Virus record (IMG/VR): IMGVR_UViG_3300030106_002183
Location: 1 to 29,236 of that record
DNA length: 29,236 nt
Source: a virus
Reading direction: 5' to 3' (one strand)
Shown: positions 22,751 through 26,474 of the stretch, one piece after another
Numbering within the stretch: position 1 is the stretch's first letter
Layout: every line of letters begins with the position of its first letter
Made by a program: the position numbers and the translations under genes
Notes under the pieces: model-generated
Database searches by the model: none
Told to the model about the DNA's origin: nothing
Seen by the model: only the letters and a program-made list of their open reading frames with translations

Positions 22751-23152
22751 TTACTTGATCTCAAAAGTTTTAGGTTTCTTTTCTTCGGGGACTTCTTTAA
22801 CGAGATGAATACAGAGCATCCCGTCTTCCATGTGTACCTGCTTTACCTTAATATGTTCTTGCAAGGGTATTTGTCTATGAAACTTTCTTTTGGCTATTCC
22901 TTCTACGAGATACTGGACGGCATCCTCTTCCCATGAACCTTCAATAGTGAGAAACTGTCCCGTCTGCTCCACAGAGATATTCTCCTTCTTGTATCCCGCT
23001 ACCGCAAACCTTAGTGCGTATTCGTCATCTCCTAGTTTAGCAACATCCATGAATGGATATTTATTTCCTGTCATATCTCTGACCATATTTTGAATATGCG
23101 TCATGTTGGTAAACAGGTCGTTATTGTCGTGCATTAGTTGTAGCTTTACCAT
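22751..23152 (-). CDS. hsp20: Small heat-shock protein, IbpA/Hsp20 family
   Basis: This is a 133-aa protein. The alpha-crystallin domain spans about 33-125: YPFMDVAKLGDDEYALRFAVAG, then FLTIEG, and the IbpA-type segment VEGIAKRKFHRQIPLQEHIKV followed by DGMLCIHLVKEVPEEKKP, ending TFEIK. The order and spacing match bacterial IbpA. It binds unfolding proteins without ATP. It is the first gene behind the leftward promoter, with a strong AGGAGA ribosome site, so it is probably expressed with the structural genes. Hsp20 genes occur in marine phages (e.g. cyanophages). Confidence 0.88.
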   Translation of the reverse strand: MVKLQLMHDNNDLFTNMTHIQNMVRDMTGNKYPFMDVAKLGDDEYALRFAVAGYKKENISVEQTGQFLTIEGSWEEDAVQYLVEGIAKRKFHRQIPLQEHIKVKQVHMEDGMLCIHLVKEVPEEKKPKTFEIK

Positions 23153-23417: not shown

Positions 23418-23446
23418 TTGACAGACCTGTATTTTATTGTTATAAT
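23418..23446 (+). promoter_or_regulatory. Rightward sigma70 promoter with perfect consensus
   Basis: TTGACA (23418-23423), 17 nt, TATAAT (23441-23446). It is a perfect match with optimal spacing, probably the strongest promoter in the window. It points to the plus-strand genes, but the first ATG (24023) is about 570 nt downstream, giving a long leader. Confidence 0.87.
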
Positions 23447-23781
23447 AAGGTTATCGGTTCGTGAGAATCGATATATACCCCCCCTACTCTATATATACAT
23501 ATAGTTGGCCCCCGCCCTCCCCTTAGTGTGCCGAAGGGCTAGGGACCTCTATACTACGTCTATTCCCTATTTCAATAATTTATTGTAGAAATTCTTAAGT
23601 AGCCTCTTCGTACGCCCGCTAGGGGTCCGGTCCCCCCCGGTACCCTTTCGATATCCCAGAACAGCACAATAATATTCTACTGGTAGGTAATTCGTATCCC
23701 GCCTTTTCCACTCCTCAGAGATGCCCAATATTAATTCCATATCTATGGAAATATAATCCCACTATGGGATACGCCCCCCTC

Positions 23782-23796
23782 TGATAATCATTATCA
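23782..23796. promoter_or_regulatory. Fur-box-like 7-1-7 palindrome
   Basis: TGATAATCATTATCA is a perfect match to the 7-1-7 consensus TGATAATNATTATCA described for Fur-family iron regulators. It lies about 330 nt downstream of the rightward promoter in the untranslated leader. Host Fur binding would act as a roadblock or affect a nearby element. It could also be a chance AT-rich palindrome, or a variant of the phage operator, which shares the core AATCATTA at 23325-23341. Confidence 0.4.
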
Positions 23797-23850
23797 TTTC
23801 TATAATCATGGAACTATCAACCCGATTTGACCAATAATGGAACATTACCA

Positions 23851-23878
23851 GAACATTGGGACAAATGTCCTGATGTTC
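23851..23878. repeat. 28-nt inverted repeat / strong hairpin
   Basis: The arms GAACATTGGGACA and TGTCCTGATGTTC pair over 13 positions, 11 Watson-Crick and two G-T, around an AA centre. As RNA the hairpin would have a tetraloop if the last A-U pair opens. There is no U-tract after it, so it is not an intrinsic terminator. A second GAACATT copy 11 nt upstream suggests repeated binding half-sites. Confidence 0.6.
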
Positions 23879-24022
23879 TCGTTCTGTACTAAATCAATTT
23901 ATTTTCCAGAATCATTTCTCACAGTGAAATTAGGTATTGTCTATCCGACCCGGCTGCGCTAACACTTTCATCACGAGACGGGGGGAACCCCATAAAACCA
24001 TACTTTTGAAAGGGTTATTAAA

Positions 24023-25725: not shown

Positions 25726-26022
25726 CTTTGGAATTTTTCTGGATGAGAACAAACCGTGAAGATCGAAAATCCGGTATCATCAAGGCAGGTACAGGGCATG
25801 ACAGCTACAGAGTCGGCTTGTGCTATAGTTATGAGCGGTATCACAGGGCTAGTTAATGACGATGCCCCTTCTGACTATTGACATAAGCCCCCTCATCGAC
25901 TACTATATAGATACTGACCAAGAGGGCAGGGAATAGAGTATATATATATATCCTCCCCTCCGGGTCGGTAAACTAAAATATCACAGTTTTTAACTATCTC
26001 CAAGCAAAAAAGGTTGTACAAA
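25726..26022. other. Mostly noncoding gap with promoter
   Basis: Apart from the promoter at 25878 I see no well-supported gene here. Two short plus-strand frames exist: 25743-25856 (37 aa, no ribosome site) and 25798-25881 (27 aa, running into the -35 box); neither is convincing. An alternating AT run lies near 25938-25950. An AAAAGG-TTGTACAAA stretch carrying another TGTACA precedes the 30-aa gene. Confidence 0.5.
25878..25906 (+). promoter_or_regulatory. Rightward promoter, TTGACA-N17-TACTAT type
   Basis: TTGACA (25878-25883), 17 nt, TACTAT (25901-25906). The 17 nt from 25901, TACTATATAGATACTGA, recurs exactly at 26142. It drives the segment with the 30-aa membrane peptide. Confidence 0.75.
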
Positions 26023-26115
26023 ATGAACAGGAATAAAGAACTTGAAACAATCAAAACCATCCTCACCCTGGTAGGTATATTCATGGTGCTATCTCTTACA
26101 ATGATAGTGTGGTAA
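26023..26115 (+). CDS. 30-aa single-span membrane peptide
   Basis: MNRNKELETIKT is a charged N-terminus, then ILTLVGIFMVLSLTMIVW forms one membrane helix reaching the C-terminus. AAAAAAGG lies 9 nt before the ATG. It is bracketed by two copies of the TACTAT-type promoter, which supports a separately expressed small transcript. No function is known. Confidence 0.5.
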   Translation: MNRNKELETIKTILTLVGIFMVLSLTMIVW

Positions 26116-26118
26116 CCC

Positions 26119-26147
26119 TTGACATAGCTGGCTGCTTGTAGTACTAT
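26119..26147 (+). promoter_or_regulatory. Rightward promoter before the tRNA-like RNA
   Basis: TTGACA (26119-26124), 17 nt, TACTAT (26142-26147). It shares the exact 17-nt downstream sequence of the promoter at 25878. The predicted start near 26154 is about 30 nt before the tRNA-like element. Confidence 0.75.
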
Positions 26148-26184
26148 ATAGATACTGAAGCAGTCAGCAGTTAATACATTTTAC

Positions 26185-26302
26185 GGAAGGCATGGCTGGT
26201 TAATTTCATGTTGGGTGCCGACAAGCCAATGGCACCCTATCCCTAAAGCATGAAAAGTTCATTAGGGTGAACTAACGCAGGGTTCGATTCCCTGCCCTTC
26301 CA
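26185..26302 (+). ncRNA. tRNA-like structured RNA (non-canonical) or attP-like tRNA fragment
   Basis: The ends pair like an acceptor stem: GGAAGG (26185-26190) with CCTTCC (26296-26301). A perfect T-arm lies at 26278-26294, stem CAGGG/CCCTG with the TTCGATT loop, and GGTTCGATTCC matches the tRNA B-box. A D-arm-like CATG-GCTGGTTAATTT-CATG carries the GGTTAA element. Between them are a 7-bp stem (GGGTGCC/GGCACCC, 11-nt loop) and a stacked stem (CCCTA/TAGGG plus ATGAA/TTCAT). At 118 nt, with a 7th-position C-C mismatch, no ordinary 7-nt anticodon loop and no CCA, it is not a standard tRNA. It may be a tRNA mimic, a processing signal, or an attP carrying the 3' end of a host tRNA gene. Confidence 0.5.
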
Positions 26303-26336: not shown

Positions 26337-26474
26337 ATGTACGTAGTATTTTCGCATAAAGGCCCTATGACTAAACACGAGTCTAGAACAGCAGCAGAGG
26401 ACGTGGTCAAGTACCTTAAAGGTAAAGGCCACGAAGCATGGATTAAATATAAAACACGAGGAGAATATCAATGA
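26337..26474 (+). CDS. 45-aa protein of unknown function
   Basis: The frame MYVVFSHKGPMTKHESRTAA... ends in IKYKTRGEYQ. It starts with a strand, followed by a basic helix (AAEDVVKYLKGKGHEAWI) and a strand, a compact alpha/beta miniprotein. GGTG before the ATG is a weak ribosome site. Its stop overlaps the next start (ATGA), making it the first gene of a coupled operon downstream of the tRNA-like RNA. Confidence 0.6.
   Translation: MYVVFSHKGPMTKHESRTAAEDVVKYLKGKGHEAWIKYKTRGEYQ

What the first reader, a model, noticed from the sequence alone, without database searches (positions are those of the whole stretch)
26185..26302. Promoter-driven tRNA-like RNA that is not a normal tRNA
Acceptor-like ends, a perfect T-arm with the tRNA B-box and a D-arm-like element flank about 67 nt that fold into two extra stems. 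No standard anticodon loop is visible. A promoter starts about 30 nt upstream, so it is probably transcribed, and the operon continues downstream. It may be a phage tRNA mimic, a regulatory or processing element in the 5' UTR, or an attP in which the last 25-30 nt copy the 3' end of a host tRNA.
Basis: partly seen in the sequence, partly recalled or inferred. Interest (0 to 1): 0.72.

Follow-up and report, generated by a model that had tools for sequence, protein, structure and literature searches.

The report
Phage tRNA look-alike lacking an anticodon
A marine-type podovirus carries, right behind an early promoter, a gene for a 118-nt RNA that has the ends and elbow of a tRNA but no anticodon to read codons, so it probably serves the virus as a tRNA mimic or RNA-processing signal rather than in ordinary translation.

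Summary
The element is real. 26185-26302 has a canonical T-arm (CAGGG-TTCGATT-CCCTG), an acceptor with six consecutive Watson-Crick pairs (C7 x C66 is mismatched) and A73, and folds far better than shuffles (z -3.8). A T-arm plus acceptor of this quality turned up in 2 of 300 shuffled windows. The D region keeps GG-UUAA but has no D-stem. The anticodon arm is replaced by a 9-bp helix, a 7-bp hairpin and a separate variable-arm-like hairpin, so there is no decodable anticodon. ARAGORN and Rfam find no tRNA or tmRNA. A sigma70-type promoter lies 66 nt upstream. The virus is Zobellviridae-like. One relative (G005) carries, 69 nt behind a similar promoter, a tRNA-Glu-like gene whose anticodon loop is also defective; a closer relative (L002) has none, and a distant one has a 91-nt tRNA-like RNA. 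attP is not supported: no known bacterial tRNA shares the 3' end and no integrase was found, though the contig is partial. No sequence homologue was found, so covariation could not be tested. Best reading: a transcribed, non-decoding tRNA mimic in an accessory early slot. Trans decoy, cis processing element and decaying pseudogene remain open.

The parts
26185..26302 (+). tRNA-like RNA, 118 nt: acceptor, stemless D-loop, replaced anticodon arm, variable-arm-like hairpin, T-arm, A73
26185..26191 (+). acceptor 5' strand GGAAGGC; pairs with 26295-26301 (6 of 7, C7 x C66 mismatch)
26191..26203 (+). D-loop-like stretch CATGGCTGGTTAA with GG-UUAA, no stem in the best fold
26204..26255 (+). in place of an anticodon arm: 9-bp helix 26204-26212/26247-26255, 7-bp hairpin GGGTGCC/GGCACCC 26213-26219/26231-26237 with an 11-nt loop, 9-nt bulge 26238-26246
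26256..26273 (+). variable-arm-like hairpin AGTTCAT-TAGG-GTGAACT, 7 pairs
26278..26294 (+). canonical T-arm CAGGG-TTCGATT-CCCTG
26295..26302 (+). acceptor 3' strand CCCTTCC and A73; no encoded CCA
26119..26147 (+). promoter P2, TTGACA-17-TACTAT (10 of 12); inferred start about 26151-26154
25878..25906 (+). promoter P1, TTGACA-17-TACTAT; a 42-nt stretch from its -10 onwards is 74% identical to that of P2
25912..25970 (+). hairpin at the predicted 5' end of the P1 transcript
26023..26115 (+). 30-aa ORF with a hydrophobic stretch (MNRNKELETIKTILTLVGIFMVLSLTMIVW) between P1 and P2
   Evidence: read by eye
26337..26474 (+). first ORF downstream of the tRNA-like RNA (45 aa, MYVVFSHKG...); no Pfam match; no + strand terminator-like site between it and the RNA

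Best explanation
26185-26302 is a phage-encoded, tRNA-derived RNA gene that no longer decodes. It is transcribed early from P2 (and by read-through from P1). RNase P would cut its 5' end and host 3' processing with CCA addition its 3' end, because it keeps the acceptor/T-arm half that those enzymes read. The anticodon arm has been replaced by extended hairpins, so the mature RNA would be a stable tRNA mimic acting in trans. My first guess is that it occupies or distracts host proteins that bind tRNAs, such as tRNA-targeting defence nucleases or tRNA-binding enzymes, soon after infection. Shown: the tRNA-like architecture, the absence of an anticodon, the promoter-like sequence, and a counterpart behind a similar promoter in one relative. 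Inferred: transcription, processing, CCA addition, trans action and target.
For: Acceptor and canonical T-arm beyond chance and strong modular fold (T-arm kept in all transcript contexts). Promoter 66 nt upstream. The relative G005 (TerL 62% identical) has a tRNA-Glu-like gene 69 nt behind a similar promoter TTGACATAG...GGTACTATAT in its early plus-strand region, and its anticodon loop is also wrong: ARAGORN reports 'tRNA-??? (ct)', a 6-nt loop and a G.A mismatch in the stem, while Rfam tRNA scores 50.1 bits. L022 (TerL 43%) has a 91-nt tRNA-like RNA with an 8-bp middle stem, a variable arm and z -3.4 in its early region. Cases with a broken decoding end but an intact acceptor/T half fit loss of decoding with retention of mimicry. 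Phage tRNAs with altered anticodon loops, or specific tRNAs, that evade tRNA-targeting defences are published (PMC10264068, PMC11555353; abstracts).
Against: No homologue by sequence, so no covariation. The closer relative L002 (TerL 83%) has no such RNA in the corresponding region, so it is dispensable or newly gained. Acceptor pairing is uncertain in one transcript context (0.15). The similarity of the two leaders is weak (71 of 2000 shuffles as good). A trans target is pure inference: no defence or RNA-repair gene was recognised nearby.
Confidence: 0.42

Rival explanations
1. A cis-acting processing and stability element. The tRNA-like fold in the P1/P2 transcript is cut by RNase P (and at its 3' side), separating the mRNA of the 30-aa hydrophobic peptide upstream from the early operon downstream and setting their ends; the released small RNA is a by-product.
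For: It sits between a small ORF and the next ORF on one transcript with no terminator-like site between; the acceptor/T half is what RNase P needs (established knowledge); tRNAs placed just upstream of a ribosome-binding site are common in phage contigs.
Against: It does not explain the extended, well-formed hairpins in the middle; an ordinary tRNA or acceptor/T-arm minihelix would do.
Confidence: 0.27
2. A decaying tRNA gene: a former phage tRNA that gained insertions in its anticodon region and is on its way out.
For: The G005 counterpart looks like a tRNA-Glu with a damaged anticodon arm; L002 has nothing there; the acceptor carries one mismatch and the D-stem is gone.
Against: T-arm and six acceptor pairs are intact, the inserted parts form 7- and 9-bp helices, and the total energy is 3.8 s.d. 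better than shuffles, which random insertion would not readily give; a promoter at similar spacing is kept.
Confidence: 0.2
3. A miniature tmRNA: a tRNA-like domain with a stemless D-loop whose middle part carries a short reading frame (ATG TTG GGT GCC GAC AAG CCA ATG GCA CCC TAT CCC TAA, about 26208-26246).
For: Topology resembles the tmRNA tRNA-like domain: acceptor, stemless D-loop, long helix in place of the anticodon stem, T-arm.
Against: No G3:U70 pair (it has A3-U70), no ALAA-like tag end, no pseudoknots, a third of the usual length; Rfam tmRNA matches only the T-arm at 11.4 bits (gathering 47) and ARAGORN finds none.
Confidence: 0.03
4. attP: the last 25-30 nt copy the 3' end of a host tRNA used as integration site.
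For: T-arm plus acceptor 3' strand is the usual core of tRNA-targeting integrases (established knowledge).
Against: 25-mer absent from 84,980 species genomes; 19-mer never in a tRNA gene; no integrase in window or relatives; the 5' acceptor strand is matched too, which attP does not need; a characterised Zobellviridae phage lacks an integrase (PMC9960094).
Confidence: 0.03

Closest known systems
Phage-encoded tRNAs that evade tRNA-targeting host defences, some through anticodon-loop mutations (PMC10264068, PMC11555353)
   Same: phage tRNA gene whose anticodon arm departs from host tRNAs; acceptor and T-arm kept
   Different: those are complete decoding tRNAs; here the anticodon arm is absent or replaced and no aminoacylation identity can be named
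tmRNA tRNA-like domain (Rfam RF00023)
   Same: acceptor, T-arm, stemless D-loop, long helix instead of an anticodon stem
   Different: no G3:U70, no tag frame of the known kind, no pseudoknots, 118 nt, extra variable-arm-like hairpin
mascRNA/MALAT1-type tRNA-like processing elements (Rfam RF01684)
   Same: tRNA-like fold that could direct RNase P cleavage of a longer transcript; the T-arm alone matches the model weakly (15.3 bits)
   Different: eukaryotic; score far below gathering (42.5)
Bacterial Y RNAs (YrlA) with a tRNA-like module
   Same: RNA carrying tRNA-mimicking D/T features (recalled, not tested)
   Different: no TROVE/Ro gene in the window, no Rfam match, and here the 5' and 3' ends form a tRNA acceptor

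Membership tests
canonical tRNA | 7-bp acceptor and 5-bp/7-nt T-arm with TTCRA loop | tested here: met
   T-arm 5 of 5, acceptor 6 of 7
canonical tRNA | D-stem and U8 | tested here: not met
   no D-stem in the best fold; A at position 8
canonical tRNA | 5-bp anticodon stem with 7-nt loop and readable anticodon | tested here: not met
   ARAGORN 0 genes, Rfam RF00005 not reported at E up to 10
tmRNA | G3:U70 alanine identity pair | tested here: not met
   A3-U70
tmRNA | match to the tmRNA covariance model beyond the T-arm | tested here: not met
   model positions 347-363 only, 11.4 bits
attP in a tRNA 3' end | identity with a host tRNA 3' end | tested here: not met
   the true host is unknown
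attP in a tRNA 3' end | integrase gene in the phage | tested here: inconclusive
   none in the 29-kb contig or five relatives, but contigs are partial
Y RNA (YrlA) | linked Ro/Rsr (TROVE) gene | tested here: not met
   contig partial
functional structured RNA family | covariation among homologues | not testable with these tools
   no sequence homologue found
phage tRNA mimic/decoy | stable processed RNA that binds a tRNA-binding host protein | not testable with these tools
   needs infection experiments

The most novel reading that the evidence does not exclude
Phages of unrelated lineages carry a class of 'adaptorless' tRNAs: RNAs that keep acceptor and T-arm (often also the D-arm) but have the anticodon arm deleted or replaced by other hairpins, used as tRNA mimics. 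The window element and G005 would be Zobellviridae-like members; about three dozen other virus contigs, many probably from rumen (e.g. L082, L089, L095, L111, L126, L131), hold an ARAGORN-invisible set with inserts or with the arm missing.
Probability: 0.3. Interest if true: 0.8.

Novelty: new variant of a known kind. Interest (0 to 1): 0.47.

Why it matters
Why phages carry tRNA genes is an old question. A tRNA-like gene that cannot decode, in an early accessory slot, separates the translation hypothesis from the defence-evasion and processing hypotheses. Standard tRNA finders miss such genes, so they may be under-reported.

Tried and rejected
Homologue searches by DNA, exact 3' 26-mer in viral contigs, neighbour proteins as bait: nothing. 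Pattern GGAAGG..T-arm..CCTTCC in viral contigs: 55 loci, none a homologue of the window element. Promoter motif as bait: apart from G005 itself no tRNA-like RNA behind it. The shared 'AGGTGACRCA' before the next ORF in window and L022 looked like synteny, but 46 contigs show it is a common ribosome-binding context after ordinary phage tRNAs. D-loop GGTTAA plus distant T-arm: mostly ordinary tRNAs; L252 and L288 are further oversize candidates, unrelated in sequence. The 15-nt antisense match between the P1 leader (25923-25937) and the T-arm/acceptor (26284-26298) is probably chance, since the P1 leader sits in its own strong hairpin. The short ORF inside the element has no visible ribosome-binding site (by eye) and was not pursued. 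Protein structure prediction was not used because the finding is an RNA.

Full report
What is there. The 118 nt at 26185-26302 read GGAAGGC-AUGGCUGGUUAA-...-CAGGG-UUCGAUU-CCCUG-CCCUUCC-A. The T-arm is canonical. The acceptor has six Watson-Crick pairs in a row and a C7 x C66 mismatch; position 73 is A and no CCA is encoded. GGTTCRANTCC is unique in the window (0.05 expected). Requiring a 5-pair T-arm plus at least six Watson-Crick acceptor pairs gave one hit in the window and hits in only 2 of 300 dinucleotide shuffles. The best fold (-45.9 kcal/mol; shuffles -32.9 +/- 3.5; z -3.78) joins the acceptor, leaves the D region open, builds a 9-bp helix topped by a 7-bp hairpin across a 9-nt bulge, then a 7-bp hairpin where a long variable arm would be, then the T-arm. 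A cloverleaf-like alternative with a CATG/CATG D-stem is 7 kcal/mol weaker. In longer transcripts the T-arm forms with probability near 1; the acceptor varies from 0.15 to 0.86 with the cut point. ARAGORN and Rfam see no tRNA or tmRNA.

Setting. The record is a 29,236-base virus contig. Its terminase is 41-43% identical to Zobellviridae such as MEP402, CRP-5 and ICP2. Late genes lie on the minus strand; the element stands in the early plus-strand region, directly behind promoter P2 (26119-26147, TTGACA-17-TACTAT); a sister promoter P1 lies 241 nt upstream with a 42-nt repeat. Between them lies a 30-aa hydrophobic ORF. The first gene downstream is a 45-aa ORF without a Pfam match; other early genes carry DUF6552 and DUF932. 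A characterised Zobellviridae phage has no RNA polymerase, tRNA or integrase gene (PMC9960094).

Relatives. No DNA homologue was found in phage records or, by exact 3' 26-mer, in viral contigs. Among the nearest virus contigs, G005 (L006/L145, TerL 62%) has TTGACATAG...GGTACTATAT and, 69 nt from the -35, a 76-nt tRNA-Glu-like gene with encoded CCA. Rfam scores it 50.1 bits as tRNA, but ARAGORN reports an unreadable two-letter anticodon, a 6-nt loop and a G.A mismatch in the stem. The leaders are weakly similar (71 of 2000 shuffles as good), so homology of the locus is suggestive, not proven. L022 (TerL 43%) carries a 91-nt tRNA-like RNA: acceptor 7 of 7, T-arm 5 of 5, an 8-bp middle stem with a 10-nt loop, a variable arm, z -3.4. 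L002 (TerL 83%) shares flanking early genes but no tRNA-like RNA in between. The slot is therefore variable, as accessory early regions are.

What it is not. tmRNA: no G3:U70, no model match beyond the T-arm. attP: the 25-mer of its 3' end is in none of 84,980 species genomes, the 19-mer is in 11 but never in a tRNA gene, and no integrase domain was found. Y RNA: no TROVE gene. These exclusions are limited by the partial contig and unknown host.

How it most likely works. The acceptor/T half is what RNase P, 3' processing and CCA addition recognise (established knowledge), so a stable processed RNA is the expectation if it is transcribed. Without an anticodon it cannot decode. I favour a trans-acting tRNA mimic, possibly a decoy for tRNA-targeting defences, by analogy with published phage tRNAs (PMC10264068, PMC11555353; read as abstracts only). 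A cis role in cutting the P1/P2 transcript and a decaying tRNA remain serious rivals. Nothing here shows transcription, processing or a target.

A wider lead. The pattern search that sought relatives brought in 55 virus contigs. About three dozen, many of which I take from their sample numbers to be rumen (from memory, not verified), hold 98-127-nt tRNA-like genes with normal acceptor and T-arms, and in most a normal D-arm, but with inserts in or instead of the anticodon arm. Others beside them have the arm nearly deleted (L111 4611-4671, 61 nt). Several come in pairs about 350-600 nt apart. They are not homologues of the window element and were selected for the acceptor GGAAGG, so their number is no measure of abundance, but they show that tRNA-like genes without a standard anticodon arm recur in phages.

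Noticed in passing
L082, L084, L086, L089, L091, L094, L095, L102, L106, L111, L116, L117, L120, L126, L128, L131-L133, L135, L136: tRNA-like genes missed by ARAGORN (Rfam tRNA 38-52 bits where it hits) with normal acceptor and T-arm but an anticodon arm that is expanded, replaced or deleted; recurring inserts such as TGGAATAAGnCGCTGAA...GGCGGTGAAGAAAGCG and AATGATGTGAATCATGATGG.
   Followed up: partly
L084, L085, L095, L102, L111, L117, L120, L126, L130, L131, between or downstream of the tRNA-like genes: A conserved apparently non-coding block with GGTAGTAGTGTAAGGCCGAGGGA lies about 355-370 nt after the start of the first tRNA-like gene; no Rfam match in L111 and no consensus fold on a rough alignment.
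   Followed up: partly
window 23452-24000: About 550 nt without an obvious gene behind a perfect TTGACA-17-TATAAT promoter (23418-23446), folding with z -3.27: a possible long leader or structured RNA.
   Followed up: no
window 26127-26169 and 25886-25926: In both P1 and P2 short inverted repeats flank the -10 region (P2: GCTGGCTGCTT/AAGCAGTCAGC, 10 of 11), perhaps an operator.
   Followed up: no
window 25923-25937 and 26284-26298: 14 of 15 complementary bases between the P1 leader and the T-arm/acceptor 3' strand of the element.
   Followed up: partly
L252 2200-2308, L288 2458-2586: Further oversize tRNA-like RNAs (109 and 129 nt) with 7 of 7 acceptors in unrelated virus contigs.
   Followed up: no
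L022 362-842 (minus strand): About 480 nt without an obvious gene between a promoter-like site and the 91-nt tRNA-like RNA; its fold is not unusual (z -1.0).
   Followed up: partly
window 22751-23152 (minus strand): Hsp20-type small heat shock protein gene (phrog_432, 1.5e-28) near the late/early boundary.
   Followed up: no
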